A stretch of 64,000 nt of DNA, taken from NCBI RefSeq assembly GCF_017696015.1, contig NZ_JAAORL010000002.1, positions 310,001 through 374,000 of the forward strand, in the 5' to 3' direction. Position numbers and translations under genes: made by a program. Positions 33,129-61,604 of the stretch are shown piece by piece (within the stretch, counting starts at the first letter, position 1; each line of letters starts with the position of its first letter). This stretch comes from Prochlorococcus marinus CUG1415 (GTDB taxonomy: Bacteria; Cyanobacteriota; Cyanobacteriia; PCC-6307; Cyanobiaceae). The notes beneath the pieces are model-generated. The model was given only the letters and a program-made list of their open reading frames with translations, was not told the DNA's origin and did not search any database.

Positions 33129-33554
33129 TTATTCTGCTTCTTCTTTAACTTCACTTTCTTTTACATCTGGCTCTTCTGCTTTTACTTCACTCTCTTTTAC
33201 CTCTGGCTCTTCTGCTTTTAGTTCACTTTCTTTGATCTTTGACTCTTCTGCTTTTACTTCACTCTCTTTTACCTCTGGCTCTTCTGCTTTTAGTTCACTT
33301 TCTTTGATCTTTGACTCTTCCGCTTTTACTTCACTTTCTTTAATCTTTGCCTCTTCCGCTTTTACATCAACTACTTTTACCTTTGGCTCTTCCGTTTTTA
33401 CTTCAACTACTTTTACCTTTGGCTCTTCCGCTTTTACATCAACTACTTTTGCTGCTATAGATTCAAACCTACCTTTAATTAAATTTATTATGAAGATTAA
33501 TATTGGAACATGGGCTAGACCACCCATAATCACTTTAGTTTCTGAATAATACAT
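33129..33554 (-). CDS. Membrane-anchored Lys/Glu repeat protein
   Basis: 141 residues from the ATG at 33,554 (longer starts are possible). A short hydrophobic stretch (HVPILIFIINLIKG) is followed by about eight and a half copies of a 12-residue unit of the form KESEVKAEESKI or KVVEVKTEEPKV. The DNA is a 36-bp tandem repeat. Highly charged, likely extended or coiled. Repeat number is probably variable between strains. No enzymatic domain. Confidence 0.6.
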   Translation of the reverse strand: MYYSETKVIMGGLAHVPILIFIINLIKGRFESIAAKVVDVKAEEPKVKVVEVKTEEPKVKVVDVKAEEAKIKESEVKAEESKIKESELKAEEPEVKESEVKAEESKIKESELKAEEPEVKESEVKAEEPDVKESEVKEEAE

Positions 33555-35464: not shown

Positions 35465-36076
35465 TTATTTAGGAAATGAATTCTTTAAATAGTTAAATAA
35501 AAAACCAGTTTTCTCATAAATATGAATTTTTTTTCTTCTTAATTCAATCCCATAAGGATTTGTAAATATCGCCAATAAAATTCTTAGAAATCTAAGTAAA
35601 TTACTTTTTGTTTCTGATTTCAGATCAATTGGCTTGTTAAGTTTTGCAAAACAATCTTGATTAATAATTTTATTTACAAGTAAGTCCTTTAAAACTTTTT
35701 TTCTCACTTCAACAGAAAGACTACTTAAAAGAACCTGTAAGCCTTTCATTGAAGATAAATCTCCGTTTAATATTTCTCTTATAATGCTTTGAAATAATAT
35801 CTCCCACTTATAAGGTTCTTTCTCAAAAAGATATAAAGCTGGACTATCTTTATTAGCAATTAATAACCTATTGCTTTCATCCAAATCATTTTGGTCTGAA
35901 TGCCAATAAGAATATAATGGTGAAAGCTTTTTAAGCTTAGATAAATCAACCAAATACTTAAACAAGAATTTCATTAATATTATAAGTAAATAAAGAAACA
36001 TCATCATTAATAAATAAATGAAAGATTCAGATTTTAAGTTCTTATAAATTGGGTATTTCTTGCAGGTAGTAAACAT
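35465..36076 (-). CDS. Hypothetical protein with N-terminal membrane helix
   Basis: 203 residues as drawn; the in-frame MMM codons near residue 24 are an alternative start. A hydrophobic helix (FLYLLIILMKFLFKYLVDL) leads into a helical soluble domain. GIELRRKKIHIYEKTGFLFN is near the C-terminus. No family recognised. Divergent from the next gene. Confidence 0.55.
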   Translation of the reverse strand: MFTTCKKYPIYKNLKSESFIYLLMMMFLYLLIILMKFLFKYLVDLSKLKKLSPLYSYWHSDQNDLDESNRLLIANKDSPALYLFEKEPYKWEILFQSIIREILNGDLSSMKGLQVLLSSLSVEVRKKVLKDLLVNKIINQDCFAKLNKPIDLKSETKSNLLRFLRILLAIFTNPYGIELRRKKIHIYEKTGFLFNYLKNSFPK

Positions 36077-36129
36077 TATCTTATTTTGTGAAAATAGAGG
36101 TATATAAAAATCTAATCTTTATAAAAATT

Positions 36130-36348
36130 ATGCTTTCTATAATTATGTTTGGAACTAGTAATTGGGTGCCTTCAGATTACCTTCTATATCTTGTTTTGAT
36201 TATGGGGGCACTAATAACAGCTGGCGTAGCTATGTCTGTTTTTTCATTTTACGAAGATCACTATTGGGGAGATAGGAATTTTAGAAATCAACTTAGATTT
36301 CATCCTTCTCATAAGAATTTATCCAATCATAATCCTAGAGAAATCTAA
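36130..36348 (+). CDS. Small two-span membrane protein
   Basis: 72 residues from the ATG at 36,130; a GTG at 36,088 would add 14. One hydrophobic segment (YLLYLVLIMGALITAGVAMS) and a polar C-terminal tail with HYWGDRNFRNQLRFHPSHKN. Followed at 36,365-36,388 by a GGTTG/CAACC hairpin that may be its terminator. Confidence 0.55.
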   Translation: MLSIIMFGTSNWVPSDYLLYLVLIMGALITAGVAMSVFSFYEDHYWGDRNFRNQLRFHPSHKNLSNHNPREI

Positions 36349-36492
36349 ATAAAATTAATTTCAAAAAAGGTTGCTTATCTAAAAACAACCTCTTCTTCCA
36401 ATGTAATAATTTATTTTTCATGACAATACATTTTATCTTTTTTAAAAGATGATTTTCTAAATTAATAAAAATTGAGCTTTAACATCAAATTC

Positions 36493-36536
36493 AAGGAGTC
36501 TGCCGTCCAGCTACAAAAACAAAAGCCCGCATCCAA
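36493..36536 (-). repeat. GGATGCGG/GGACGGCAG motif, copy 1
   Basis: On the minus strand TTGGATGCGGGCTTTT, 10 bases, then GCTGGACGGCAGACTCCTT. A related copy is at 62,464-62,501 on the plus strand. The two conserved blocks and their spacing are kept. Each lies close to a copy of the larger repeat and of the cupin gene. Confidence 0.45.
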
Positions 36537-36640
36537 CCCCTACTCGTAACTTAATCATATTTTAAATTTTGACAAAGATTTCTAAAGATTCTTGATTATT
36601 CATTACCGCCACTGATTCAACCCAATTCCATCCTTAACTT

Positions 36641-36856
36641 TCTTTCCTAAATAGGAACTTTTAAGGATAATTAATCTAAATTACAAAGTTATCCAAAATT
36701 TACTCAAACCATATATTTTCGCCAAAACCGATGGGAAAAAGTCTCCTAACTACTGACTAATTAACCATGTACCTTTATTTATTGCAAGCGTTCTTAAAAA
36801 TCAAAAAAACTAATCCATAACTCGTCAACATTTTTTATTGATTGAAATAACATAAA
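36641..36856 (+). repeat. Dispersed modular repeat R1 (degenerate)
   Basis: Begins CTTTCCTAAATAGGAACTTT, as in all later copies. An 11-bp-phased pair (TCCAAAA 36,692; CTCAAAC 36,703) and a block ACTACTGACTAATTAACCATG matching the conserved hairpin loop follow, then TTGATTGAAATAACAT. The following 80 bases up to the cupin start are also shared with the second cupin copy. Stem complementarity is poor here, so this copy is decayed. Confidence 0.7.
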
Positions 36857-36944
36857 AAAAACACTTAAAAGTTAAATTCGGTACTGAAAAATATTGTAAA
36901 AATAAATATTATAAGCCTAAATAATTTTCTAGGAATCGAAATTC

Positions 36945-37373
36945 ATGATTAAGAATTTTTGCATAGTAATAGCCTTTGCTTTAATGCTCATCAACCCAAG
37001 TATTTCTATAGCTGCAAAATCTCCTGTTGATGTACAAGAAGTCTTTGTGGGCTCTGAGACTATGGATGGAGATGCTCTTAAATATCCAAAAGGTAAAGCT
37101 GAAATAAGATTACAAAGAATCGAGTTAGCCGAGGGAGGGATAGTCCCACTCCACTCTCATCCAATTCCATTATTAGGAAATGTTGAGCAAGGTTCGATCG
37201 TTGTTAAAAGACAAGGAATGGAAGATCTTACATATACTGCAGGGGATACTTTTATAGTTGGTCCAAAGACACCAAAACATACAATGGGTAATGCAAAAAC
37301 TGATAATGCAATAGTTTGGTTCGCAGCAATAGGAGCAAAAGATATCCCAATCCTAATTCCCGCCGAAGGATAA
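36945..37373 (+). CDS. Exported cupin domain protein, copy 1
   Basis: 142 residues. A signal peptide (CIVIAFALMLINPSISIAA) precedes a single cupin domain: AEGGIVPLHSHPIPLLGNVE carries the two metal-binding histidines, and GPKTPKHTMGNAKTDNAIVW the later His. Probably a small periplasmic metal-dependent enzyme or binding protein. 134 of 142 residues match the copy at 61,176-61,604, and about 90 upstream bases are shared. Confidence 0.82.
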   Translation: MIKNFCIVIAFALMLINPSISIAAKSPVDVQEVFVGSETMDGDALKYPKGKAEIRLQRIELAEGGIVPLHSHPIPLLGNVEQGSIVVKRQGMEDLTYTAGDTFIVGPKTPKHTMGNAKTDNAIVWFAAIGAKDIPILIPAEG

Positions 37374-37401
37374 TTTTTAACTTTAAATCAATTTTTTTTG
37401 A

Positions 37402-37440
37402 TTGACAGGCAAACTAAAATAAGGAGCAATTAGCTCTTTT
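37402..37440 (+). promoter_or_regulatory. TTGACA-N7-TAAAAT block before DUF3764 gene
   Basis: TTGACAGGCAAACTAAAATA and then a small GAGC/GCTC hairpin with a T run, ending three bases before the ATG at 37,444. It also follows the cupin stop, so it may terminate the cupin transcript and start the next one. Confidence 0.5.
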
Positions 37441-37443
37441 TGT

Positions 37444-37728
37444 ATGACTATTGAAACTACTGTGTTCACCTTTAAACTTTCAAATACATTTGAGGAGTGG
37501 GTAAAAATGTTTGATAGTCCTGAGATAGTTGCATTTCATAAATCCGTAGGTCTAACTCCACTCTATCGAGGCAAAAGTTTAATTAATCCTAAAGAAGTTA
37601 TTGTTATTCATCAAGCTAAAGAAGGAATAGCTAAGCATGTATTCTCAGATCCAGAAACCATAAAGAATATAGAGGCTGGAGGTCACATATATAGCACAAC
37701 AAAAATTACAAGTTGGGTTTCAGATTAG
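37444..37728 (+). CDS. DUF3764 family protein
   Basis: 94 residues. TTVFTFKLSNTFEEWVKMFD and FHKSVGLTPLYRGKSLINPK followed by EVIVIHQAKEG match the cyanobacterial DUF3764 family (a small alpha/beta fold, possibly a dimeric barrel). Function unknown. Preceded by the promoter-like block. Confidence 0.72.
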   Translation: MTIETTVFTFKLSNTFEEWVKMFDSPEIVAFHKSVGLTPLYRGKSLINPKEVIVIHQAKEGIAKHVFSDPETIKNIEAGGHIYSTTKITSWVSD

Positions 37729-37759
37729 TTAAAACACTTACTTTTGGAACTCTAAAAAT

Positions 37760-37930
37760 TTAATATAGATTATTTTCAAATTCAGGTCTCATTTTAATTA
37801 GTTTTAAAATTTCTAATTCAAGTTCCTCTTCGTAATTAAAACCTAAAACATTGAGTGAGCTAAACCTAATGAAGTTTATTTTTTTTAAGTTATTTCCATT
37901 TTTGTAAATTAATAACTTAATAATTGATTT
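37760..37930 (-). pseudogene. ORF remnant without start codon
   Basis: Open minus-strand frame ending FNYEEELELEILKLIKMRPE FENNLY at 37,760, clearly protein-like, but no ATG, GTG or TTG lies between the preceding stop (37,931) and this segment. Probably the 3' end of a decayed gene. Confidence 0.35.
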
Positions 37931-37988
37931 TTATGATTTAAAGAAAATGCTTAGTTTTTGATTCAATACCTTAAAAACCTTTAAAGAA

Positions 37989-38027
37989 TTGACAGTAAAT
38001 ATAAAATGAATTAGCTCCTTATTTTGT
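37989..38027 (+). promoter_or_regulatory. TTGACA-N7-TAAAAT block
   Basis: TTGACAGTAAATATAAAATG followed by AATTAGCTCCTTATTTTGT and the ATG at 38,028. Same spacing as the other blocks, with a weak hairpin. Confidence 0.45.
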
Positions 38028-38423
38028 ATGAAGTTAAAAAATATTTTAAAAACTACTGGGATTCTTCATATTCTATTGGGATTATTAATTATTTTCCTAC
38101 TAATTTTTTCTGTAGAGACTATTGCTGGAAATGCATCTAATGAAACATTGCTTCTTGTTAGAGGTACTGCGGATGTTGTAGCAGCTAGTAATTTAGGTAT
38201 AGGTTTTTTATTGATTATTGGCAGCTCTATCAAAGATAAAAAATCTATAAAAAAAGTTTTATCAGGTGAACTAGCTTTAATGGCCTGTTTGTTAGCAGTA
38301 GCTTTATTCAATACTTTTAATGCTGGAACAATTGTTGATGGAGGTCCTCCACCTCCTTTTTGGTTTGTTTTGATAGTCAACCCTATATTATGTATTTATG
38401 GATTAGTTAAAAGGAAAAAATGA
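38028..38423 (+). CDS. Hypothetical four-span membrane protein
   Basis: 131 residues, about four helices (LHILLGLLIIFLLIFSV; LGIGFLLIIGSSI; GELALMACLLAVALFNTF; FWFVLIVNPILCIYGLV). The short GGPPPPFW loop before the last helix is distinctive. No family recognised. Preceded by the TTGACA block. Confidence 0.6.
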   Translation: MKLKNILKTTGILHILLGLLIIFLLIFSVETIAGNASNETLLLVRGTADVVAASNLGIGFLLIIGSSIKDKKSIKKVLSGELALMACLLAVALFNTFNAGTIVDGGPPPPFWFVLIVNPILCIYGLVKRKK

Positions 38424-38500
38424 AACGCTTAATTTTATTTATATCTTATTATGGCTTTATGGAATTAGAAGAATTATTTTTAATTTCATCCTCATTTTCT

Positions 38501-39006
38501 TTACCAAAAACTTTTGCTAATAGGCTTTGAGGTATATAAATTATTTGATAAATTTTTCGCACATTTATCATTAGTAAATATGATATTTTTTTTAGTTTTT
38601 TGCCATTTTTGATTTAGAAGTTTTAATCCTTCAATATCATTTTCTAATAGAGCTAACTTTGTACCCTTAGTCTTTATTTCTTCAAGTAATGGAATCATTT
38701 GATTATGATTCTTACACCAATTAGCAGAATAGAATTCGTACCCTTTTCTTTTACTCTCATCCATAAGCAAGCTTAATGAATTACTGGCTTTTCTAATGTC
38801 TGCTTTTAATTGAATTTTTTTTGATGCTTCTCCTTTTGGAAGTTGCTCAAATTTATTAAAATAAATACATCTTTTGTATATAAAGACGTAATAAATCACA
38901 ATTGTAGTGATTGAAACACCTGCTATTAATAAAAAAATTAAAATCCATTTAATAAATTTATTTAATTTAAATTTTTTATCTTTTTCTCCTATATTTTTTT
39001 ATTCAT
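38501..39006 (-). pseudogene. Membrane-anchored thioredoxin-like gene with frameshift near its start
   Basis: From 38,990 down to 38,501 a frame encodes an N-terminal helix (FIKWILIFLLIAGVSITTIV) and a soluble part with GYEFYSANWCKNHNQMIPLL, reminiscent of a thioredoxin-type WCxxx motif. The only good start, ATG at 39,006, is out of frame by one base at a run of seven A (38,994-39,000 on the plus strand as T). One extra base gives MNKKNIGEKDKKFKLNKF. Could be a pseudogene, a phase-variable gene, slippage or a sequencing error. Confidence 0.55.
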
Positions 39007-39118
39007 GAATAAAATTAATTTTTATTATTTTTTTTAAAATTATATCTACTATTAAATTTAGAAATCTTTTTAAGTGATCATTGACATACATTTACAGAGA
39101 TGAACAAATCTCACTTAG

Positions 39119-39254
39119 CACTTTCATTAAAAGTGACTTTAATGGATAATAAATTGATATTCAAAAAAGTTACCCAAACTTTAATCAAATCCTATATTTT
39201 TGCCTAGAATCCATGTTAATAAAGAGACCTAATTACTTGCTAATGAAGGTTGAA
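39119..39254 (+). repeat. Dispersed modular repeat R2 (truncated)
   Basis: ACTTTAATGGATAATAAATT matches the core. The 11-bp-phased pair CCAAAC (39,174) and TCAAAT (39,185) follows, then a decayed version of the hairpin with TACTTGCTAATGAA. The right part with the second pair and the promoter block is missing. It lies 40 bases upstream of the TPR-CHAT gene. Confidence 0.6.
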
Positions 39255-39294
39255 CCAAAGAAGAAAAACTCATAGGCATACTCTGAAAAATTAA

Positions 39295-42200
39295 TTGAAA
39301 AATTTATTCTTATCAAGAAAAATGTTTTATATTCTAATACTACTTATTAGTTATGTAGCATTACCCTTAAAAGTAATTTCTGATAACACCAATTTAAAAT
39401 CATCAAATAATAAAACTGAAAATATCTTTTCCATCATAAATAAAAGTAATTACTTCTTTGATCAAGGAGTAAAGAAAATGAATAAGAGTGAATATAAAGA
39501 AGCTTTAGAAGATTTTAATAAAGCGATAGAAATTAATCCTAGTTTTACAAATGCGATTTTTAATAGAGCATTCATGAAAGATAAACTTGGTGATTTTTCT
39601 GGTGCTATAGATGATTACTCAAAAGTGATTGAACTTGATCCAAAAGATATTGATGCTTACTTTAATCGTGCACTTTTAAAGTCAAATAATAATAATCCTC
39701 AAGGCGCAATTGCTGATTACTCAAAAGTGATTGAACTTGATCCAAAAGATATTGATGCTTACTTTAATCGTGCACTTTTAAAGTCAAATAATAATAATCC
39801 TCAAGGCGCAATTGCTGATTACTCAAAAGTGATTGAACTTGATCCAAAAGATATTGATGCTTACTTTAATCGTGCACTTTTAAAGTCAAATAATAATAAT
39901 CCTCAAGGCGCAATTGCTGATTACTCAAAAGTGATTGAATTAGACTCTAAATCTAAGAAAGCATTATTATTTAGAGGCACTGCGAAATATCAAATTAAAG
40001 ATTATAGTGGCGCAATATTAGATTTTTCGGTAGTTCTAAAACTGGAACCTAAAGATGAAGAAGCATTATTATTTAGAGGCTTGGCAAAGACACGTTTAAG
40101 TAACCAAAGAGGGGCGATAGAAGATTATTCCCAAATAATTACTATTAATCCAGAAAACGTTGCTGCTTTGGAATCAAGAGGCATAGGTAGGGTGATTTTA
40201 AAAGATTACAAAAATGCGATTAATGACTTTAATAGGATTCTAGAATTAGAACCTAAAAACTATGTAGCTTTTGCTTGGAGGGGTAATGCTAAAGGTGAAT
40301 TAAAGGATTTTGAAAATGCTCTAAAAGATTTTAAACAAGCTTTAAAAATCAATAAGGACTATAAAGATGCATTAGATTTCAAATCATCTCTTGAAAAAAA
40401 AATAGCCTTAACAAACAAGATTGAGGGATTGGATCAAATTTGGAGTCTTCAGAATCAAATTCAAGAATATAAAACTAAAAAAGAATACAAAAAAGTTATT
40501 GAAAGTTATAAAAAGATTTTTGAAATAGAATCTAGAATTAATCGTCAAACTTCATTTCCTCTAAGTTCAATAGCTTATCATTATGAAAAGTTGGGAGAAT
40601 ACGAGAATGCTCTCAATTATCAATGGAGAGCAATAAAACTTGAAGAATCTATTTCTGGTAAAGATTCTATAAAAGTAGCTAATCTTTTAAGCGATTTAGC
40701 ATTCCTTTATCAAGGAGGAAAATATTATCTTCCAAAAGAAAAATTTGAAGAAGTTTTTAAAATTTATAATAGAGTTTTAAAAATAAAAGAAAATGAATAT
40801 GGGATTAATAGTATTCAAGTTGCTGCAACTTATCAAAATATAGCTTCACTTTATTCAGCTAAAGCAAATTGGGAAAAAGCCATTGAATTAAGGGAAAAAG
40901 CAATAGATATTTTATCTAAGGTAAAAGATCCAAAAGATTTTTATACATCGGTTTTAGACTATAAAGGCTTTTTATTCTCTCAAATTTCATACGATCTTGT
41001 AAACGCAGGTAACCTAATAGGAGCTAAAAGTTATGCCCAAAAAAGTCTGGGAATCAAAACAAAACTTTATCCTAAAGATCATGAAGAAATTGCAGGTGCA
41101 TATGAATCTCTTGGATCTATTTTTTATTACTTGGGAGACTTTGCAAAATCGCAAAGCTATATAAATAGCGCTTTAAAAATTTATAAAAAGGATAATAAAA
41201 AATATAAACTTGAATTAGATTCTTTACAAAAACTTGATCAAATAATTACATATTTAATTGCAGCAAAGGAGGGTAAAAAAACAACATTTAAAAATAGTAT
41301 TTTACTTTCATCAAATATGAATGAGGATGACCCTGAAGCATCTTTAAAACTCACTATTGATTCTGTTTATCTCACTTTGAGAGGATCTTTTGATAAAGCA
41401 ATAAACTTATTAGAAAAAAAATTAAAATTAATAGAAAAAAATAGAGGAATTGATAACTTTGATTTTTTGAGAACATTAAGTTCTATTGGAGAAATATATA
41501 TTTTTAACGGGGATATTATTAAGGCAGAGGAGTACTTAGAAAGAGCCTTAGAAAATTACAATTTGTACTTTAATACTAATATCATTAACAATGAAATTTT
41601 AGAACTTTATCAAAGAGTTGCCACACTTTATATCTTAAAAAAGGATTCTAAAGAGGCAGAAAAATTCATTGAGAAAACAATAGAATCGTCTATAATTTTC
41701 GCTAAAGAACAATCCCAATATTTAGCTGAAAGTGATCGCAAAAATTTTGCTAGTTTAATTTTATCGCCATATGAAACTCTATTCACAGTAATTGATGAAC
41801 TTCCGAATGGTAAACAATTAGCCCTTAAGGCAAGAATTAACAGGCAAGGTTTATTAGAAGACATTGAAAGATATCAATCAAGTTTCTCAAATTTGAAGAA
41901 TGAAGAAAAAGAAATAGCTTATGAAATAAAACAATTAAATATTAAATTATCAGATGTATTACTAAATAAGGAAGACTCTCAAAAATTAAGTAGAAAGAAA
42001 AAAAAACTTGAAGAAAAACTATACTCTAAATTACCTTCACTAAAACCAAGAATTATAGAAATTCAAGAGATTAAAGATCTACTTCCAGAAAATTCTGCAT
42101 TGATTGAATTTCAAAAATATCGCTCCTTAGAAATTAATAAAAGAAAAAATTCCTCCTCTAACAATCTTGGTGATTACAAATATATAGCTTTAATACTAAA

Positions 42201-43245
42201 ATCAGATGGTGAAATTCTAAAAATTAATCTTGGACAAGCAGAAGAGATAGAAAACAAAATCAACGAAGTTTTAATAAGTATTGAAAACATTAATCCTAAT
42301 TCACAAGATCTTTTAGAAGAACTTGGAAATTTGATAATAAAACCATTAGAAAAAGCTATAAAAAATACAAATACAATTTTCATTGCTCCTGATGCCGAGC
42401 TAAATAGGATACCTTTTGCAGCTATTGGTTCTTATGAAACAAATAAACTATTGGGAGAATTAAAAGAAGTAAGATTATTAACTACTGGAAGAGAATTAAT
42501 AGAGTTAGCAAGAAACAAATTAACTAGTAAGAAAAATTCTTTGGTTGTAGCAAATCCTAAGTTTGATTTAACAAAAAAATCATTGATTATAAATATTGAA
42601 GATAATAATTCCCCTCAGAAAAGATCAGGTATCCTTGATAATCGTAATTGGCAAGAATTAAAAGGAACAATTGAAGAGGGAGAGATAATTGCAAGTCTTC
42701 TAAATGGAAAACTACTAATGCAAGAGGAAGCTACCTCTATTGCTATTCAAGAAACTCAGTCCCCAAAAGTTATCCACATAGCAAGCCATTCATACTTTGT
42801 TGATAACAAAGATGAAAAAAATCCTTTACTTAGGAGCGGGATAGTACTTGCAGGAGCTAATAATCCTAAATTATTTCCTAATGATGATGGTTATCTAACT
42901 GGACTAGAGATTACTAGACTTAATTGGCAAGGTACTGAATTGGTTGTTATTTCTGGTTGCGAATCTGGTAAAGGGGATAGTGAATCTGGAGAAGGGCTAT
43001 TTGGACTTAAAAGAGCAATTTCTGTTGCAGGAGGCAGATCAAGTATTCTGTCTTTATGGGAAGTGGACGATGGGGCTACTGCATCTTTTATGAAAAGCTT
43101 CTACAAAAAATTAATTAATGGAGATGATAAGGCAACTGCTTTAAAGAAAACACAAAATGAATTTAAAAAACATCCGATACCTGGATTTAGGCACCCATAT
43201 TTCTGGTCAGCATTTCAATTAAGTGGAGATTGGAATAAAATCTAA
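39295..43245 (+). CDS. Exported TPR-CHAT (caspase-like) protein
   Basis: 1316 residues, TTG start (ATG at 39,322 possible). KNLFLSRKMFYILILLISYV forms a signal peptide. About 12 TPR units fill residues 50-370 (IDAYFNRALLKSNNNNPQGA and similar), more TPRs follow to about 800, and the C-terminal 350 residues are a CHAT domain: HIASHSYFV with the catalytic His (about 1165), then VVISGCESGKGD with the catalytic Cys (about 1222) and LKRAISVAGGRSSILSLW. CHAT proteins are caspase/separase-like proteases or scaffolds. Here the protein should be extracytoplasmic. Three perfect 102-bp repeats lie in the TPR region. Paired with a metallopeptidase. Confidence 0.85.
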   Translation: MKNLFLSRKMFYILILLISYVALPLKVISDNTNLKSSNNKTENIFSIINKSNYFFDQGVKKMNKSEYKEALEDFNKAIEINPSFTNAIFNRAFMKDKLGDFSGAIDDYSKVIELDPKDIDAYFNRALLKSNNNNPQGAIADYSKVIELDPKDIDAYFNRALLKSNNNNPQGAIADYSKVIELDPKDIDAYFNRALLKSNNNNPQGAIADYSKVIELDSKSKKALLFRGTAKYQIKDYSGAILDFSVVLKLEPKDEEALLFRGLAKTRLSNQRGAIEDYSQIITINPENVAALESRGIGRVILKDYKNAINDFNRILELEPKNYVAFAWRGNAKGELKDFENALKDFKQALKINKDYKDALDFKSSLEKKIALTNKIEGLDQIWSLQNQIQEYKTKKEYKKVIESYKKIFEIESRINRQTSFPLSSIAYHYEKLGEYENALNYQWRAIKLEESISGKDSIKVANLLSDLAFLYQGGKYYLPKEKFEEVFKIYNRVLKIKENEYGINSIQVAATYQNIASLYSAKANWEKAIELREKAIDILSKVKDPKDFYTSVLDYKGFLFSQISYDLVNAGNLIGAKSYAQKSLGIKTKLYPKDHEEIAGAYESLGSIFYYLGDFAKSQSYINSALKIYKKDNKKYKLELDSLQKLDQIITYLIAAKEGKKTTFKNSILLSSNMNEDDPEASLKLTIDSVYLTLRGSFDKAINLLEKKLKLIEKNRGIDNFDFLRTLSSIGEIYIFNGDIIKAEEYLERALENYNLYFNTNIINNEILELYQRVATLYILKKDSKEAEKFIEKTIESSIIFAKEQSQYLAESDRKNFASLILSPYETLFTVIDELPNGKQLALKARINRQGLLEDIERYQSSFSNLKNEEKEIAYEIKQLNIKLSDVLLNKEDSQKLSRKKKKLEEKLYSKLPSLKPRIIEIQEIKDLLPENSALIEFQKYRSLEINKRKNSSSNNLGDYKYIALILKSDGEILKINLGQAEEIENKINEVLISIENINPNSQDLLEELGNLIIKPLEKAIKNTNTIFIAPDAELNRIPFAAIGSYETNKLLGELKEVRLLTTGRELIELARNKLTSKKNSLVVANPKFDLTKKSLIINIEDNNSPQKRSGILDNRNWQELKGTIEEGEIIASLLNGKLLMQEEATSIAIQETQSPKVIHIASHSYFVDNKDEKNPLLRSGIVLAGANNPKLFPNDDGYLTGLEITRLNWQGTELVVISGCESGKGDSESGEGLFGLKRAISVAGGRSSILSLWEVDDGATASFMKSFYKKLINGDDKATALKKTQNEFKKHPIPGFRHPYFWSAFQLSGDWNKI
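39613..39938 (+). repeat. Perfect 102-bp tandem repeat inside the TPR-CHAT gene
   Basis: Units begin at 39,613, 39,715 and 39,817 and are identical over 102 bases; a fourth starts at 39,919 and diverges after about 20 bases. Each unit encodes one 34-residue TPR. Identity at third codon positions indicates recent duplication or gene conversion. Confidence 0.9.
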
Positions 43246-43302
43246 TAAAAAATAATTGTTAAACAATAAGATTAGTCTATAATTAAATAAAATTTTGAAA
43301 TC

Positions 43303-44067
43303 TTGAAAAAATTTTTTTCATTTATCTTATTTTCCTTTATTTTTGCTGAGGGTAGTTACGCAAATATTTTTGATAACTTAAGGAATGAAGGATCAAAGAA
43401 AACTGATATTTTCACCTACATAGATAAAACAACTAAGTTCTTAAACACTGAGTGGGATAAAGATGAGGATTTAAAAAACGCATTAAGACCACCACAAATT
43501 TTACCAATAGCTGCTGATTCAAAAGTATATGGTGGATGCGGTGAGTATTCAATTGGGGCAGAAGTAGGTGGGAGTGCTTATTGTCCAAGGACACATACTA
43601 TTTTTTTGGTTCCAGAACAGCTTCAATATTTTGCGGATGAATTTGGACCATCTGCAGTAGCTTTTGTTGTTGCTCACGAATACGCTCATGCAGTGCAGTT
43701 AGCTTTTGGTATTTTAGGAACTTTAAAAGATCCAGCTTTAGAACTCCAAGCAGATTGCATAGCTGGAGCATTTATAAAAGATGGGAGTTCAGAGATAGGA
43801 ATAACAAGACAAGATACTCTTGACATGGCTAATTTAGCTTATGCAATAGGAGACCCGACTCATGGTAGTGGAGCTCAAAGAAAATATGCTCTCTCAGCAG
43901 GCATGGGAATAATTGATTATGGATGTACTAATAAAGAAATGGAAAATTTGGGTAATAACAAAGTAGATACTTCTATTGTGTCTACAAAAAGATCTATTGA
44001 TTCAAAATTAAATTTAAATATAACTCCTTATCCAAAAACTATCGTAGGTTCTTTTAAAGTTAATTAA
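43303..44067 (+). CDS. Exported neutral zinc metallopeptidase (YpfJ-like)
   Basis: 254 residues, TTG start. Signal peptide MKKFFSFILFSFIFAEGSYA, then VYGGCGEYSIGAEVGGSAYC and AFVVAHEYAHAVQLAFG with the zinc motif HExxH (from about residue 126) and ELQADCIAGAF with the third ligand. Matches the putative neutral zinc metallopeptidase family (YpfJ type), at typical length. It starts 57 bases after the TPR-CHAT stop and is likely co-transcribed with it. Confidence 0.82.
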   Translation: MKKFFSFILFSFIFAEGSYANIFDNLRNEGSKKTDIFTYIDKTTKFLNTEWDKDEDLKNALRPPQILPIAADSKVYGGCGEYSIGAEVGGSAYCPRTHTIFLVPEQLQYFADEFGPSAVAFVVAHEYAHAVQLAFGILGTLKDPALELQADCIAGAFIKDGSSEIGITRQDTLDMANLAYAIGDPTHGSGAQRKYALSAGMGIIDYGCTNKEMENLGNNKVDTSIVSTKRSIDSKLNLNITPYPKTIVGSFKVN

Positions 44068-44462
44068 TCAATTTTATATATATAGTTTTTGCTGCCCTTA
44101 TTATTTTTTAATCCTGAAAAACCTTTAGGTTGAGAATTAATTCTTTCTGTCAGTTCTGCTGCAATTGCACTACAACCTCCTTTTGACTTTATATAAGCTG
44201 AAGAATCTGCAAAAAATCCCTTTCTTTGAATAATGTTATAAACCTGCCAAGGCTCCATATTAAATTCGTCTTTCATAAATTGATTTACATTTTCATATGC
44301 TTCATCATCTCTAAATATCCCATATTCTCTAGCACAAAAATTAATCCCAAATGAAATGTAAGCATAGATATATGGATCTTTTAAAGCATTTACTGGCGCA
44401 ATAATAAAGCTAGAAGTAAATCCAATGATTATTCCGGATAAAGATAAAAATTTCTTAATCAT
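44064..44462 (-). CDS. Exported hypothetical protein
   Basis: 132 residues. Signal peptide (MIKKFLSLSGIIIGFTSSFI, cleavage near NALKD), then a helical domain with NFCAREYGIFRDDEAYENVN and GGCSAIAAELTERINSQPKG. Two cysteines could form a disulfide. No family recognised. It overlaps the 3' end of the metallopeptidase gene on the other strand. Confidence 0.6.
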   Translation of the reverse strand: MIKKFLSLSGIIIGFTSSFIIAPVNALKDPYIYAYISFGINFCAREYGIFRDDEAYENVNQFMKDEFNMEPWQVYNIIQRKGFFADSSAYIKSKGGCSAIAAELTERINSQPKGFSGLKNNKGSKNYIYKID

Positions 44463-44587
44463 ACATATTACAAATTTATAAAAATCCTACTTTCTTTGAA
44501 ATAGTTTGCAATTAAATACTTGTCGCCCTTAATAAAAATTAATTAACAATCAAAATTAATTATTTCTTTTAAGGCATATAAAAAGTT

Positions 44588-44781
44588 TCACTTTCCTAAA
44601 TAGAAACTTTGATGGATAATAAATTTATAAGGATAACACGTCCTCCAAGCCTTAAAAATCGCCGAGATCCCTTTATATAAATGAAAAAAAAGTTTAGCTA
44701 AGGAAAAGTACATCCTAAAAACTATTACAGGAATCTTAAGGATTAGATATTTTTTATTCAAACTTTAATCAAACTTTTAGA
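44588..44781 (+). repeat. Dispersed modular repeat R3
   Basis: CACTTTCCTAAATAGAAACT and GATGGATAATAAATTTATAA, then GCCGAGATCCC and a loop with TTAGCTAAGGAAAAGTA; the right arm is worn (TTACAGGAATCTTAAGG). The second pair is TCAAAC at 44,758 and 44,769 (11-bp period). No promoter block follows; the next plus-strand gene is far downstream. Confidence 0.7.
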
Positions 44782-44866
44782 AGAAATTACACACTCTTGC
44801 AAACAGAAAAAAAGCCTGCCTATATCCCTAAAAGCAAGCTCTCATGACGATTTAATTTTTAAATAT

Positions 44867-45046
44867 TTATACTGGCAATCTACAATCAAGTTCTATTATT
44901 CCTTCATCCATTAATCGACCAATTTTTAAAACTATTGCCATATCTAACCTTGAAAATTGTGATTGATGATTTGTAATCCAATCCAATTCAGATAAAGTTA
45001 TTACTCCAGTTGTATTAACTTTGAGAAAGAGAATTCCTAAATTCAT
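44867..45046 (-). CDS. Small soluble protein (59 aa)
   Basis: MNLGILFLKVNTTGVITLSE, then LDWITNHQSQFSRLDMAIVL and an acidic end. Amphipathic, helix-rich, resembling small helix-turn-helix or assembly factors, but no specific match. ATG start; ordinary frame. Confidence 0.55.
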   Translation of the reverse strand: MNLGILFLKVNTTGVITLSELDWITNHQSQFSRLDMAIVLKIGRLMDEGIIELDCRLPV

Positions 45047-45148
45047 TTATTTAATTAGTTGCTTTTTTCCTTTAGATATCATTACCACTGGCACTAATAG
45101 ATATATAAAGAAGGAGATTAAGAAAATATCTATGGTTCATTGTTTTAT

Positions 45149-45376
45149 CTATAAATTTTTTAAATCCTGCTCTATTTTCTCTAATTTTTGATTAATTTCT
45201 TTTTGCTCCCTCAATAGAGCCTTTTTCTTTGTTTGAAGTTCTTTGTTAAAGGGGGAATTAAAGTATTTTTGATAAGCAAGGATAAAAACAGCCAGTGCCA
45301 CCACAATACCTATCGCACCAATTATTAGTAAGGGAGAAGATGGCAAATCGTAAAAAGGTATAGAAAGTAGAAGCAT
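45149..45376 (-). CDS. Single-span coiled-coil membrane protein (intact copy)
   Basis: 75 residues from the ATG at 45,376. LLLSIPFYDLPSSPLLIIGA, a helix, then YQKYFNSPFNKELQTKKKAL and a Lys/Glu coiled coil. It is one base downstream of the hli gene at 45,378-45,506, so part of the hli operon. A frameshifted relative lies at 17,310-17,575. Unknown role, perhaps a chaperone or scaffold for Hli or photosystem proteins (inference from context). Confidence 0.65.
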   Translation of the reverse strand: MLLLSIPFYDLPSSPLLIIGAIGIVVALAVFILAYQKYFNSPFNKELQTKKKALLREQKEINQKLEKIEQDLKNL

Positions 45377-45377
45377 T

Positions 45378-45506
45378 TTAAAAAATACCTGGAATGATCC
45401 AGCCAAAAAGACCGTAGTTTACTACTAATGCCAAGAATCCCATCATTGCCATTCTTCCATTAGTTATTTCAGCATTTTGCCAATAATTAGGTTGTGATTT
45501 TTCCAT
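45378..45506 (-). CDS. hli: Hli-type protein, 42 aa
   Basis: NAEITNGRMAMMGFLALVVN is a single Lhc-type helix with the NGRxAMMGF core; the end GLFGWIIPGIF differs from the TTGQIIPG ending of the other Hli proteins here. Member of the operon 46,115-45,149. Probably a pigment-binding stress protein. Confidence 0.85.
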   Translation of the reverse strand: MEKSQPNYWQNAEITNGRMAMMGFLALVVNYGLFGWIIPGIF

Positions 45507-45538
45507 TTTATTTGTAGTTAATTGTTTTAAGTTTTTGG

Positions 45539-45799
45539 TTAAACGAAACCTGGAATAATTTGTCCGGTAGTTAGATATGCACCAATAGCAGCCATAAGAC
45601 CAAGCATTGCAAATCTACCGTTAATAGTTTCTGCAACTACTTTTTCCTTTTCAATTGTTTGTGTTTTTGTTTTTGAATTTTTCATTTGATTGTTGTTTAA
45701 ATAGATTAAATTTTCTTCTTGAAATTGTTTAGTTAAATAAGCGAGGACTAAAGCAGTTAATGAGACCATGAAAATCAAAAAAATTGATAATGTGCTCAT
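45539..45799 (-). CDS. hli: Hli protein with extra N-terminal membrane helix
   Basis: 86 residues from the ATG at 45,799, which overlaps the stop of the upstream hli gene. Residues 1-22 are a hydrophobic helix (MSTLSIFLIFMVSLTALVLA), followed by a linker and the Hli domain (TINGRFAMLGLMAAIGAYL, TTGQIIPGFV). An ATG at 45,685 would give a 48-residue Hli like the one at 23,382-23,522. The overlap with the upstream gene and the open frame support the longer two-helix form, but both may be made. Confidence 0.75.
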   Translation of the reverse strand: MSTLSIFLIFMVSLTALVLAYLTKQFQEENLIYLNNNQMKNSKTKTQTIEKEKVVAETINGRFAMLGLMAAIGAYLTTGQIIPGFV

Positions 45800-46008
45800 T
45801 AAAAAATGCCTGGAATAATTTGACCAGTTGTTACGTATGCACCTAGCAATGCAACGAATCCAATCATTGCCCAACGACCATTAACTTTTTCAGCATTTTG
45901 AGGGTATCCCTCATATGCAACAGATTCATCTATATATGGAAGAGTTTCTGAAGGAAACATATTTTGTCTTCCATCAGATTCAGTTGTTATGTATGAAGAA
46001 TTTATCAT
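45799..46008 (-). CDS. hli: Hli protein, 69 aa
   Basis: A 40-residue polar N-terminus (YITTESDGRQNMFPSETLPY) precedes the helix KVNGRWAMIGFVALLGAYV and TTGQIIPGIF. Start and stop codons overlap those of its neighbours by one base on both sides (TAATG), so the cluster is tightly coupled. Confidence 0.9.
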   Translation of the reverse strand: MINSSYITTESDGRQNMFPSETLPYIDESVAYEGYPQNAEKVNGRWAMIGFVALLGAYVTTGQIIPGIF

Positions 46009-46115
46009 TAGAACCAACCTGGAATAATTTGACCAGTTGTTACGTAGGAACCAACAGCAGCTACGAAGCCTAGCATTGCTGCCCATCCATTAAATCTTTC
46101 TGCTTCAGGAGTCAT
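46008..46115 (-). CDS. hli: High-light-inducible protein, 35 aa (identical to 23,275-23,382)
   Basis: Same 35 residues as the hli gene at 23,275-23,382 (ERFNGWAAMLGFVAAVG, TTGQIIPGWF). First gene of the cluster. Shared upstream bases include ATGTTATATTTCTTTAC. Confidence 0.93.
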   Translation of the reverse strand: MTPEAERFNGWAAMLGFVAAVGSYVTTGQIIPGWF

Positions 46116-46132
46116 AATTTTAAAAAAAATAT

Positions 46133-46175
46133 TACGTAAAGAAATATAACATAAATATTAACAGATGTAAAGAAA
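46133..46175 (-). promoter_or_regulatory. hli operon promoter region with HLR1-like boxes
   Basis: Read on the minus strand: CTTTACATCTGTTAATATTT, then ATGTTATATTTCTTTACGTA. TTTACATC and GTTAATAT resemble a pair of HLR1 half-sites (RpaB). The second block is shared with 23,220-23,260. Inference from sequence only. Confidence 0.5.
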
Positions 46176-46324
46176 CTTATCTATAAGTTTATATATATAG
46201 CGATAATTACACGGATCTGTCACAGTAGCGTACAGTTTTTGGTTTATTTACAGCAACTATTAGACATCCAAGCAGTAACTCAATGAATGACATAATAATT
46301 TTCTTACATCTCTAGGAGAAAAAA

Positions 46325-46370
46325 GGAGCGACAGGGTACGAACTTGCGACCTAGCGTTCCTAAAGCATAC
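46325..46370 (-). other. tRNA-Pro 3'-half remnant A
   Basis: On the minus strand: ATGCTTTAGGAACGCTAGG, TCGCAAGTTCGTACCC, TGTCGCTCC. It aligns with the anticodon-loop-to-acceptor part of the tRNA-Pro-like remnant at 47,639-47,720. T loop and T stem are degenerate, and there is no 5' half. This is the usual form of an attachment-site remnant. Confidence 0.6.
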
Positions 46371-46429
46371 TCACGATCGAGAAGAAAATGCTTTACATTT
46401 TGTAACAGCAATGTAATTTTTCTTAACAA

Positions 46430-47509
46430 TTGAGTGTATCTCCACGGGTTGATCTTTCTCACAGCGATTTATCTAGTTATGAGGAACTTAATCAAAAAAA
46501 CTCTAGGCCTGTTATTGCAGTGACAATGGCCTCCAGTCGACAGGGGTCTTCAGTCGTAAGGCATTTGTCGCAAAGTGGTGTTTTTCAGATTAGAGCAATT
46601 ACTCGTTCTCCCTATAGTAAGAGGGCTAAGGTTTTAGCTAACTTGCCAAATGTCGAAATTGTTCAAGGAGATCTCCTTGAACCAGAAAGCTTAAAAAGAG
46701 TTTTTTCAGGGGTTTACGGAATATTTGGCAATACGACGCCCACAAAAGGGTGGAAATTGGGCCGTGGAAGCATGGTTCGTGAATATGAAATAGAGCAAGG
46801 GAGAAACTTAGTAGACGTTGTAAAGCAACTGGCTGGATTAGGTACATTAAAGCACTTTGTTTTTAGTTCAGTTTGCAAACCCAAGGACCCTCTAAAGAAT
46901 GAGCCAGCACCAGGACATTTTACAAGCAAGTGGAATATTGAGGAATACATACTAATTAATGGGTTGAAAAAACTTTCAACAATTCTTCGACCTGTTAGCT
47001 ACTTCGAGAATTTCGATAGTGATCTTCCTGGTGTGCAGATTTCCGAATCAATTTTCCCGGGAGTTGTCCACAAAGACAAAGTTTGGCAAACCATCGCAGT
47101 TGATGATGTTGGACTATGGACGAGGGCTGTTTTTGAACATCCCAAAAGGTTTTGGGGAGAATCAATGAATATTGCTGGAGAAGAGATGACAGGGCAAGAA
47201 ATGGCGGCCCTATGGCAAAAAATAAATCCCAATGCATCTCCTTCAGTTCGCTATTCAATGATCCCACGAAATCTTATGAATTTCATTGAGCACGATATTG
47301 CGCTAATGGCTAGTTGGATAGAAAGAGCAGGATATGGAGCAGATTTGAAAGCGCTCAAAGTCCTAGCGAACGAGCTAGACATAACTATGACCCCTCTATC
47401 TTCCTGGCTTAAGGGAAAGGCATCAGGCAAAACAAAAAAAAGATTGCCTAACATTGATTTACAAAGAAGATTTGCTCCTTTACCTAGTCTTCCCAAACAG
47501 GGGAATTGA
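46430..47509 (+). CDS. NmrA-like NAD(P)-binding protein
   Basis: 359 residues, TTG start. An NmrA/atypical SDR Rossmann fold: VIAVTMASSRQGSSVVRHLS (glycine/serine version of the cofactor motif), QIRAITRSPYSKRAKVLANL, GDLLEPESLKRVFSGVYGIF and HFVFSSVCKP. Likely a redox sensor or reductase. G and C are visibly more frequent than in neighbours, and it sits between two tRNA-Pro remnants, so it was probably imported. Confidence 0.8.
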   Translation: MSVSPRVDLSHSDLSSYEELNQKNSRPVIAVTMASSRQGSSVVRHLSQSGVFQIRAITRSPYSKRAKVLANLPNVEIVQGDLLEPESLKRVFSGVYGIFGNTTPTKGWKLGRGSMVREYEIEQGRNLVDVVKQLAGLGTLKHFVFSSVCKPKDPLKNEPAPGHFTSKWNIEEYILINGLKKLSTILRPVSYFENFDSDLPGVQISESIFPGVVHKDKVWQTIAVDDVGLWTRAVFEHPKRFWGESMNIAGEEMTGQEMAALWQKINPNASPSVRYSMIPRNLMNFIEHDIALMASWIERAGYGADLKALKVLANELDITMTPLSSWLKGKASGKTKKRLPNIDLQRRFAPLPSLPKQGN

Positions 47510-60807: not shown

Positions 60808-61080
60808 CCCTACCACCCACTACTTTCCTAAATAGAAACTTTCTTCGACTAATATTGTTAGATAAACTAAATAAAATGCTTTGGATTTGACTGACTTACG
60901 AAAAAGTTAACAAAATGCCATACCAGCACCATACCAGCAGCCTTATTTCCCGCAAATCATAGACTATGACTGAACCTAACTACTGGCTAATGAACCATGT
61001 ACCAGTTGTCATAGCAATGGATCTCAAAAATCAGATAAATTCCGTCCACACGTCGTCCACACTTTTAGTTGATTAAAATT
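60808..61080 (+). repeat. Dispersed modular repeat R10
   Basis: CCCTACCACCCACTACTTTC start, then the R4-type module (AAACTAAATAAAATGCTTTG). First pair CCATACCAGCA at 60,918 and 60,929. Hairpin arms CTATGAC (60,964-60,970) and GTCATAG (61,008-61,014), loop TACTGGCTAATGAACCATGT. Second pair GTCCACAC at 61,044 and 61,055. Then TTTTAGTTGATTAAAATTCC. The following 100 bases are shared with the region upstream of the first cupin gene. Confidence 0.85.
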
Positions 61081-61175
61081 CCATCAAGAAAAGCCTAAAA
61101 AGTTAAATCTGGTACTGACAAATATTTTAAAAATAAATACTATATGCCTAAATAATTATCTAGGAATTTAAATTC

Positions 61176-61604
61176 ATGATTAAGAATTTATTCATAGCAA
61201 TCGCTTTTGCTTTGATGCTCATCAACCCAAATATTTCTATAGCTGCCGAATCGCCTGTAGATGTACAAGAAGTCTTTGTAGGTTCTGAAACTATGGATGG
61301 TGATGCTCTTAAATATCCAAAAGGAAAAGCAGAAATAAGATTACAAAGAGTCGAATTAGCTGAGGGAGGGATAGTCCCGCTTCACTCTCATCCAATTCCA
61401 TTATTAGGTAATGTTGAGCAAGGTACAATTGTTGTCAAAAGACAAGGTATGGAAGATCTTACCTATACAGCGGGGGATACATTTATAGTTGGTCCAAAGA
61501 CACCAAAACATACAATGGGTAATGCAAAAACCGATAATGCAATAGTTTGGTTCGCAGCAATTGGAGCAAAAGATGTTCCAATTCTAATTCCTGCAGAAGG
61601 ATAA
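61176..61604 (+). CDS. Exported cupin domain protein, copy 2
   Basis: 142 residues, 134 identical to 36,945-37,373. Signal peptide, then the cupin motif GGIVPLHSHPIPLLGNVEQG and PKTPKHTMGN. The few differences cluster in the signal peptide (LFIAIAFALML) and are otherwise conservative (I/V, S/T). The upstream 90 bases and the repeat R10 match the first copy's upstream region, so the whole block was duplicated. Confidence 0.82.
   Translation: MIKNLFIAIAFALMLINPNISIAAESPVDVQEVFVGSETMDGDALKYPKGKAEIRLQRVELAEGGIVPLHSHPIPLLGNVEQGTIVVKRQGMEDLTYTAGDTFIVGPKTPKHTMGNAKTDNAIVWFAAIGAKDVPILIPAEG

What the first reader, a model, noticed from the sequence alone, without database searches (positions are those of the whole stretch)
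39295..44067. Exported TPR-CHAT protein paired with an exported metallopeptidase
Both genes encode signal peptides and lie head to tail, following repeat R2. CHAT domains are caspase-like proteases and TPRs recognise targets; export places this outside the cytoplasm, unlike the better known intracellular TPR-CHAT defence proteins. The metallopeptidase may be its target or a second effector.
Basis: partly seen in the sequence, partly recalled or inferred. Interest (0 to 1): 0.7.

Follow-up and report, generated by a model that had tools for sequence, protein, structure and literature searches.

The report
Exported two-protease gene pair, Prochlorococcus
A Prochlorococcus genome carries two neighbouring genes for proteins predicted to be exported, one a caspase-like protease with a repeat-built binding part and the other a zinc peptidase, and the two genes are found side by side in many related cyanobacteria, which suggests that they work together outside the cytoplasm.

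Summary
Confirmed: 39295-43245 encodes a signal-peptide-like N-terminus, TPRs and an intact CHAT domain (His1165, Cys1222); 43303-44067 encodes a predicted-exported PF04228-type zinc metallopeptidase (MP). The genus is Prochlorococcus. Of 17 strong MP loci among 266 genus genomes, 13 touch a TPR-CHAT gene, one touches a contig-cut TPR gene, 3 do not. In other genera of the family 4 of the 6 strongest MPs touch a CHAT, one has a 96-aa ORF between, one is three genes away. Gene order differs between loci. His and Cys survive in 31 of 31 related CHATs, HExxH in 23 of 24 MPs. Best reading: an exported two-protease module with a changeable TPR-CHAT sensor-protease and a metallopeptidase partner. 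Many relatives add c2 (sigma-70-like) and c1 (one hydrophobic segment, Ig-like C domain), suggesting proteolysis controlling a sigma factor across the membrane; the window's genome lacks both, so that cannot be the pair's only job. 'Secreted CHAT' proteins of marine Synechococcus islands are in print; the MP pairing was not found in the papers searched. Activity, localisation and substrate are untested.

The parts
39295..43245 (+). TPR-CHAT protein, predicted exported, 1316 aa, TTG start
39295..39384 (+). Predicted signal peptide of the TPR-CHAT protein (end approximate)
   Evidence: hydrophobic stretch; no signal-peptide predictor run
39612..39939 (+). 3.2 identical tandem copies of a 102-bp TPR unit inside the gene
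42304..43230 (+). CHAT domain, aa 1004-1312
42787..42789 (+). Predicted catalytic His1165 (HIASH)
   Evidence: kept in 31 of 31
42958..42960 (+). Predicted catalytic Cys1222 (ISGCESG)
   Evidence: kept in 31 of 31
43303..44067 (+). Zinc metallopeptidase (MP), predicted exported, 254 aa, TTG start, PF04228, gluzincin-like in the model
43675..43689 (+). HEYAH zinc-binding motif
   Evidence: H125, E126, H129 invariant in 16 of 16
43741..43743 (+). Glu147, likely third zinc ligand (ELQAD)
   Evidence: E147 and D151 invariant in 16 of 16; role recalled from gluzincins
44064..44462 (-). Small protein, 132 aa (sp132), hydrophobic N-terminus, convergent with MP and overlapping its stop; same position in G002, G421 and G549
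   Evidence: 2 of 266 genus genomes have it, both with the pair
39090..39270 (+).
44557..44779 (+). Next direct copy of the same repeat, downstream of sp132

Best explanation
The two genes are one exported two-protease module of Prochlorococcus and related genera of its family. The TPR-CHAT protein is a sensor-protease in the periplasm or envelope: its TPR array, which can grow by tandem duplication, binds some extracytoplasmic ligand, and its CHAT domain (His/Cys) cuts protein. The metallopeptidase is its partner, most likely acting next to it in one proteolytic cascade (one maturing or activating the other, or both cutting the same envelope protein). Shown by sequence: domains, catalytic residues, export-like N-termini, conserved adjacency in different orders, patchy distribution. 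Inferred: that both are active, that they meet outside the cytoplasm, the order of the cascade, the ligand, and the purpose (regulated proteolysis or envelope defence).
For: Adjacency: of 17 strong MP loci in 266 genus genomes (E <= 9.3e-29) 13 have a CHAT gene as direct neighbour on the same strand (3 CHAT-MP, 10 MP-CHAT), 1 (G205) a TPR ORF cut by the contig end, 3 (G105, G188, G216) no CHAT neighbour. Co-occurrence: 14 of 22 strong CHAT genomes against 3 of 244 others, Fisher 2.8e-15, relatedness and incompleteness not corrected. Other genera: of the six strongest MPs outside the genus in 300 family genomes G421, G549, G386 and G517 touch a CHAT, G637 has a 96-aa ORF between, G415 is three genes away; the weaker G572 also touches one. 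CHAT tree of 38: the MP-adjacent label needs 8 changes, at least 4 forced by starred branches, against 12.9 in shuffles, 1 of 500 as low: MP was gained by, or lost from, several CHAT lineages. His/Cys 31 of 31. Export-like N-terminus: CHAT 28 of 30, MP 23 of 24, other ORFs 47 of 172, c1 0 of 17, c2 0 of 16. HExxH in 23 of 24 MPs. Identity MP/CHAT/TPR part 87/65/44 for G000-G002 and 97/95/73 for G136-G029. Near-identical tandem TPR copies in 4 of 37 CHAT genes. MP model resembles gluzincins (neprilysin 6suk Z 8.5, rmsd 3.7 over 161).
Against: No activity or localisation data. In 8 of 22 strong CHAT genomes no strong MP was found. G572's MP lost HExxH although it sits next to a CHAT. Fast TPR change is seen in 4 of 11 close pairs (MP >= 87%), from two lineages; the other 7 have TPR parts at 90-99%. 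The 8 changes on the CHAT tree may include losses of MP, so re-pairing is not proved. Foldseek found nothing below E 4.6 for the MP model, and Z 8.5 is at the edge of what is informative. Of 15 MP-like loci fetched outside the genus, 8 (weaker matches) have no CHAT in the stretch; 37 of the 54 family matches were not inspected.
Confidence: 0.55

Rival explanations
1. Transmembrane sigma-factor control: in full loci the exported CHAT/MP proteases cut the outer domain of c1, a single-pass membrane protein that holds the sigma-70-like protein c2, and so switch on genes; the window carries a reduced version that lost or never had c1/c2.
For: c1 is found in 17 of 22 strong CHAT genomes and 6 of 244 others. 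c2 lies next to c1 in 16 loci, within a few genes of a CHAT. c2 aligns by profile with the ORF upstream of DUF1822 in other cyanobacteria (hhalign 97.8%, 7.8e-13, 301 columns); 4 of 5 of those scanned pass the Sigma70_r4 cut-off. c1: one hydrophobic segment near residue 190 in 13 of 13 and two invariant Cys, both after it; model with an N domain, a low-confidence linker and an Ig/FN3-like C domain. CHAT lies in at least 8 of 20 wider DUF1822 stretches.
Against: G000, G002 and G261 have the pair but neither c1 nor c2. c1 as DUF1822 is weak (E 0.0014, probability 17.9). The hydrophobic segment scores only 1.4-2.05 and both flanks are net positive, so membrane insertion and orientation are not settled. 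c2 itself matches no sigma Pfam model. Of the six c1 genomes without a strong CHAT, five were fetched and show no CHAT match in the stretch.
Confidence: 0.22
2. Envelope defence or self/non-self conflict: TPR variation tracks phage, predator or competitor molecules, and the proteases kill or block at the surface.
For: Patchy (22 of 266), several loci with two or three CHAT genes, differing flanks, in-gene TPR duplication; 4 CHAT loci carry a gene pair whose L055 members match AAA and DUF2201/VWA-like models, which recalls ternary conflict systems (recalled).
Against: PADLOC scan of the two proteins gave only a TPR match at 7.6e-4; the CHAT half has no match in 50,697 phage records, which neither supports nor excludes defence; no defence test.
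Confidence: 0.2
3. The metallopeptidase is a substrate, zymogen or effector that CHAT activates or destroys, with sp132 as its inhibitor.
For: MP is small, export-like and next to CHAT; sp132 is convergent with MP in 4 genomes of three genus codes.
Against: sp132 has no match in the other 264 genus genomes, including those with the pair; no cleavage-site evidence.
Confidence: 0.12
4. Neighbours by chance: two unrelated envelope proteases carried in the same variable regions.
For: Some genomes have one without the other; losses of MP could explain the scattered label on the CHAT tree.
Against: Direct contact in 13 of 17 genus loci and in other genera, in three gene arrangements.
Confidence: 0.08

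Closest known systems
Secreted CHAT domain proteins of marine Synechococcus genomic islands (Syn_GI122, PMC7522525, one passage read)
   Same: Exported CHAT proteins on variable islands of marine picocyanobacteria; probably related (inferred, sequences not compared)
   Different: The passage mentions no metallopeptidase partner and no sigma-like genes
Csx29 / CASP type III-E TPR-CHAT protease (PMC10028731, passages read)
   Same: TPR-CHAT protease; a linked sigma factor in the fuller loci here; protease relieving a sigma inhibitor there
   Different: There RNA-activated with Cas7-11 and cytoplasmic (the latter recalled); here export-like, and in the window's genome no c1 or c2
HetF of Anabaena (PMC8406250, passages read)
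   Same: Cyanobacterial CHAT and TPR protein held at the envelope
   Different: CHAT at the N-terminus (aa 1-555), with one TM segment and TPRs; here signal peptide, TPRs, CHAT at the C-terminus, plus MP
KPN_02809/YpfJ neutral zinc metallopeptidase (PF04228, NF050010)
   Same: HExxH and E-x-QADC-type motif; PF04228 over its cut-off
   Different: 52.9 bits against an equivalog cut-off of 250, profile matched only from position 84; HEYAH instead of HExGHH
ECF54 sigma factors with CHAT neighbours (PMC8999054) and ECF/DUF1822/EACC2-caspase loci (PMC8195603), passages read
   Same: Sigma factor next to a CHAT or caspase-like protease; DUF1822 next to sigma
   Different: No exported metallopeptidase mentioned; c1 only weakly like DUF1822

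Membership tests
CHAT (PF12770) | CHAT domain over the curated cut-off | tested here: met
   221.3 bits against 24
CHAT (PF12770) | His/Cys dyad in the window protein and relatives | tested here: met
   31 of 31 relatives of the window's CHAT with blastp > 150 bits
CHAT (PF12770) | Proteolytic activity | not testable with these tools
   needs purified protein
Zn_peptidase (PF04228) | Match over cut-off and HExxH | tested here: met
   38.9 against 23.2 bits; HEYAH
KPN_02809/YpfJ equivalog (NF050010) | Equivalog cut-off of 250 bits | tested here: not met
   52.9 bits
Known TPR-CHAT defence system (PADLOC) | Match of the two proteins to a CHAT-type defence model | tested here: not met
   only a TPR model at 7.6e-4 for the CHAT protein, none for MP
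Type III-E CASP (Csx29) | Cas7-11 in the locus | not tested
   no Cas7-11 model was run
Gluzincin fold (MP) | Fold like neprilysin/M48-type peptidases | tested here: inconclusive
   Z 8.5 to 6suk, but no Foldseek match below E 4.6
Sigma-70 family (neighbour c2, not in the window) | Sigma regions 2 and 4 | tested here: inconclusive
   no direct sigma Pfam match; profile match to sigma-like ORFs 97.8%
DUF1822 (neighbour c1, not in the window) | PF08852 match | tested here: inconclusive
   no PF08852 match; hhalign E 0.0014, probability 17.9

The most novel reading that the evidence does not exclude
A periplasmic counterpart of the CRISPR-linked TPR-CHAT/sigma circuit: an exported, re-tooled TPR-CHAT receptor-protease and its zinc peptidase read signals outside the inner membrane of picocyanobacteria and, where c1 and c2 are present, cut c1's outer domain to free a sigma-70-like factor; the window holds the minimal, signal-to-proteolysis form.
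Probability: 0.18. Interest if true: 0.8.

Novelty: new variant of a known kind. Interest (0 to 1): 0.5.

Why it matters
Prochlorococcus genomes are very streamlined, yet some keep 4-5 kb, and some relatives about 17 kb (L064), for CHAT proteases with export signals and their neighbours. If the pair is a functional unit, it is a lead to how picocyanobacteria sense or fight at their surface, and it would extend TPR-CHAT proteases to a paired periplasmic role. The c1/c2 neighbours make a specific, testable link between exported proteolysis and transcription.

Tried and rejected
Phage origin: the CHAT C-terminal half has no match in 50,697 phage records and no relative in viral contigs (single-protein query that finds close relatives only); the MP alignment gave one weak viral-contig match, not followed. 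Structured RNA in 36000-46500: none over gathering score. Promoter-like sites: 23 against 30.5 in shuffles; terminator-like 3 against 1.8, uninformative. PDB by sequence: none for the CHAT half, one at E 0.45 for MP. Foldseek with the MP model: nothing below E 4.6; VIA-align, limited to Foldseek's own 181 candidates, gave the gluzincin-like matches. c1's N domain resembles PD-(D/E)XK nucleases (2w8m Z 8.3); borderline, not used. Context: the downstream epimerase-like gene found no close counterpart in 13 other genomes (one weak match, 1.1e-4), so no empty site was shown. ORF calls in relatives are mechanical.

Literature: searches ('CHAT domain' with Prochlorococcus, 2 papers; DUF1822, 2; CHAT domain/cyanobacteria/caspase/periplasm, 1; HetF/CHAT/PatU3, 0; CHAT/caspase/anti-sigma/TPR, 3; neutral zinc metallopeptidase with cyanobacteria, 5, listing only; HetF/heterocyst/caspase, 5; secreted CHAT, 2; CHAT domain with metallopeptidase, 1, a Nostoc extract proteome seen as listing only), 97 (marine Synechococcus, 1). 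Of these I read passages of six: PMC7522525, PMC8195603, PMC8999054, PMC8406250, PMC10028731, PMC10907252; the others were seen as listings. None seen reports the CHAT-metallopeptidase pair; the library holds only open-licence papers.

Mended on checking: the notebook (entries 3 and 4) says that all six family MPs are next to CHAT and that MP was re-paired; the report gives 4, 1 and 1, and leaves gain or loss open. Because c1's flanks are both net positive, I lowered the sigma model from 0.25 to 0.22 and the novel case from 0.20 to 0.18. Export control added.

Full report
Observation. The two genes exist as described. The first encodes 1316 aa: hydrophobic N-terminus, TPRs, and a CHAT domain at 1004-1312 (221.3 bits, cut-off 24). 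The second, 57 bp downstream on the same strand, encodes 254 aa with a hydrophobic N-terminus, HEYAH and ELQAD (PF04228 38.9 bits, cut-off 23.2; NF050010 52.9 bits, cut-off 250). Both start with TTG. The CHAT gene contains 3.2 identical copies of a 102-bp TPR unit.

Organism. The window is G000:C2:310001-374000 of a 1.73-Mb genome.

Distribution in the genus. Of 266 genomes, 32 match the CHAT C-terminal half at E <= 0.001, 22 of them strongly (E <= 2.3e-59); 23 match the metallopeptidase (MP), 17 strongly (E <= 9.3e-29). 14 of the 22 strong CHAT genomes have a strong MP, against 3 of the other 244 (many genomes are incomplete, and relatedness is not corrected for).

Adjacency. I fetched stretches for all 22 strong CHAT genomes and all 17 strong MP genomes (the window for G000) and called ORFs mechanically. 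In 13 of 17 MP loci the direct neighbour is a TPR-CHAT gene on the same strand: CHAT then MP in G000, G002 and G184; MP then CHAT in G095, G261, G017, G029, G136, G145, G203, G040, G123 and G200. In G205 the neighbour is a TPR ORF cut by the contig end. G105 (DUF481 neighbour, then contig end), G188 (Mrr-type nuclease neighbour) and G216 (CHAT on another contig) do not show it.

Other genera. In 300 genomes of the family 54 have an MP match. I fetched 15 of the 52 outside the genus. The six strongest: CHAT directly adjacent in G421, G549, G386 (divergent) and G517; a 96-aa ORF between in G637 (divergent); three genes away in G415. The weaker G572 is adjacent too. The other eight fetched, with weaker matches, have no CHAT in the stretch (some stretches are short). 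37 were not inspected.

Is the link more than one inherited arrangement? In a tree of 38 CHAT domains (G415 left out as too short) the 19 MP-adjacent ones need 8 changes of label, at least 4 forced by starred branches, against 12.9 in shuffles, 1 of 500 as low. The label is clustered, yet scattered over several CHAT lineages by gains, losses or both. In the MP tree G000 and G002 group with G421 and G549 (94/91, just under a starred branch), and these four share sp132, a small protein convergent with MP; but the CHATs of G000 and G002 group with those of G125 and G216 (95/85, starred). That mismatch fits exchange of CHAT beside a more constant MP and sp132, without proving it. sp132 is in 2 of 266 genus genomes, both with the pair.

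Residues and export. Of 31 CHAT proteins related to the window's (blastp > 150 bits in the fetched stretches; weaker CHATs not included) all keep His and Cys. A hydropathy rule (12 residues without D, E, K or R within the first 56, mean 1.75 or more) passes 28 of 30 testable CHATs (the other two, in G123 and G200, look export-like by eye; one more is truncated), 23 of 24 MPs, 0 of 17 c1, 0 of 16 c2 and 47 of 172 other ORFs of 150 aa or more. HExxH is present in 23 of 24 MPs; G572's lacks it. Four cysteines are invariant or nearly so in the MP alignment (C79, C94, C152, C208), which fits a disulphide-forming compartment (inference).

Rates. MP/CHAT/TPR-part identities: G000-G002 87/65/44; G136 with G029, G145 and G203 96-97/92-95/72-73. 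The other seven of eleven close pairs (MP >= 87%) have TPR parts at 90-99%. Near-identical tandem TPR units occur in 4 of 37 CHAT genes. The TPR array can change, but fast change is shown in two lineages only.

Neighbours in larger loci. c2 (about 436 aa) and c1 (about 396 aa) lie head to tail within a few genes of a CHAT in 16 loci; c1 is in 23 of 266 genomes, 17 of them strong CHAT genomes. c2 has a C-terminal helix-turn-helix-like stretch (weak Pfam matches) and aligns by profile with the ORF upstream of DUF1822 in other cyanobacteria (97.8%, 7.8e-13), of which 4 of 5 scanned pass the Sigma70_r4 cut-off. c1 has one moderate hydrophobic segment near residue 190 in 13 of 13, with net positive charge on both sides, and two invariant cysteines after it; its model has an N domain, a low-confidence linker and an Ig/FN3-like C domain. 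Its kinship to DUF1822 is weak by profile (E 0.0014, probability 17.9) and rests mainly on gene order. CHAT domains lie in at least 8 of 20 wider DUF1822 stretches. Sigma plus DUF1822 plus caspase-like loci are in print (PMC8195603), as are CHAT neighbours of ECF54 (PMC8999054). The window's genome, G002 and G261 have neither c1 nor c2, and five fetched c1 loci without a strong CHAT in the genome show no CHAT match nearby.

Mechanism. Most likely the pair is an exported proteolytic unit whose TPR array senses and whose CHAT and zinc domains cut. Shown: anatomy, linkage, residues. Inferred: activity, location, cascade order, ligand. The sigma-release model is attractive for the full loci, by analogy with Csx29/Csx30/CASP-sigma (PMC10028731, passages read), but cannot be the whole story for the window. 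Defence is possible and untested.

Novelty. CHAT, TPR-CHAT, secreted CHAT in marine Synechococcus islands (PMC7522525) and PF04228 peptidases are known. The conserved pairing was not found in the searches listed under Tried and rejected. I rate it a new variant of a known kind.

Noticed in passing
window 36642-62729 (copies at 36642, 39090, 44557, 50922, 53131, 54379, 56915, 59926, 60807, 62589): A dispersed intergenic repeat of up to ~220 nt, all ten copies on one strand, 1-6 kb apart; two successive copies bracket the CHAT-MP-sp132 stretch. Found in 7 of 7 Prochlorococcus genomes tested, mostly clustered in one region each, not tied to CHAT loci in G029, G030 and G095.
   Followed up: partly
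window 33137-33441: 8.5 copies of a 36-bp repeat inside a 169-aa ORF on the minus strand.
   Followed up: no
window 36814-37113 and 61045-61344: A 300-nt duplication, 86% identical, covering the starts of two related 142-aa ORFs, the first with a Cupin_2 match.
   Followed up: no
L054, L058, L059, L067, L069, L070, L071, L079: A small export-like protein family (DVYVxGxxRS...GxYVxxHYRSxP) beside CHAT or MP in 8 loci.
   Followed up: no
L055, L056, L057, L060: A gene pair near TPR-CHAT and c1/c2; the L055 members match AAA and DUF2201/VWA-like models, the others by clustering only.
   Followed up: no
L063, L064, L065, L067, L068, L070, L071, L072: A DnaB-C-like ATPase family (c4; only the L064 member scanned) in or near CHAT clusters.
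   Followed up: no
G583, G454, G496, G408, G387, G434 (family scan): Shorter MP relatives (ORFs of about 204-218 aa) without CHAT nearby; their matches run across one or two stop codons, not explained.
   Followed up: no
L257 8663-9523: A metallopeptidase relative that lost HExxH but still sits next to a TPR-CHAT gene, a possible pseudoenzyme.
   Followed up: no
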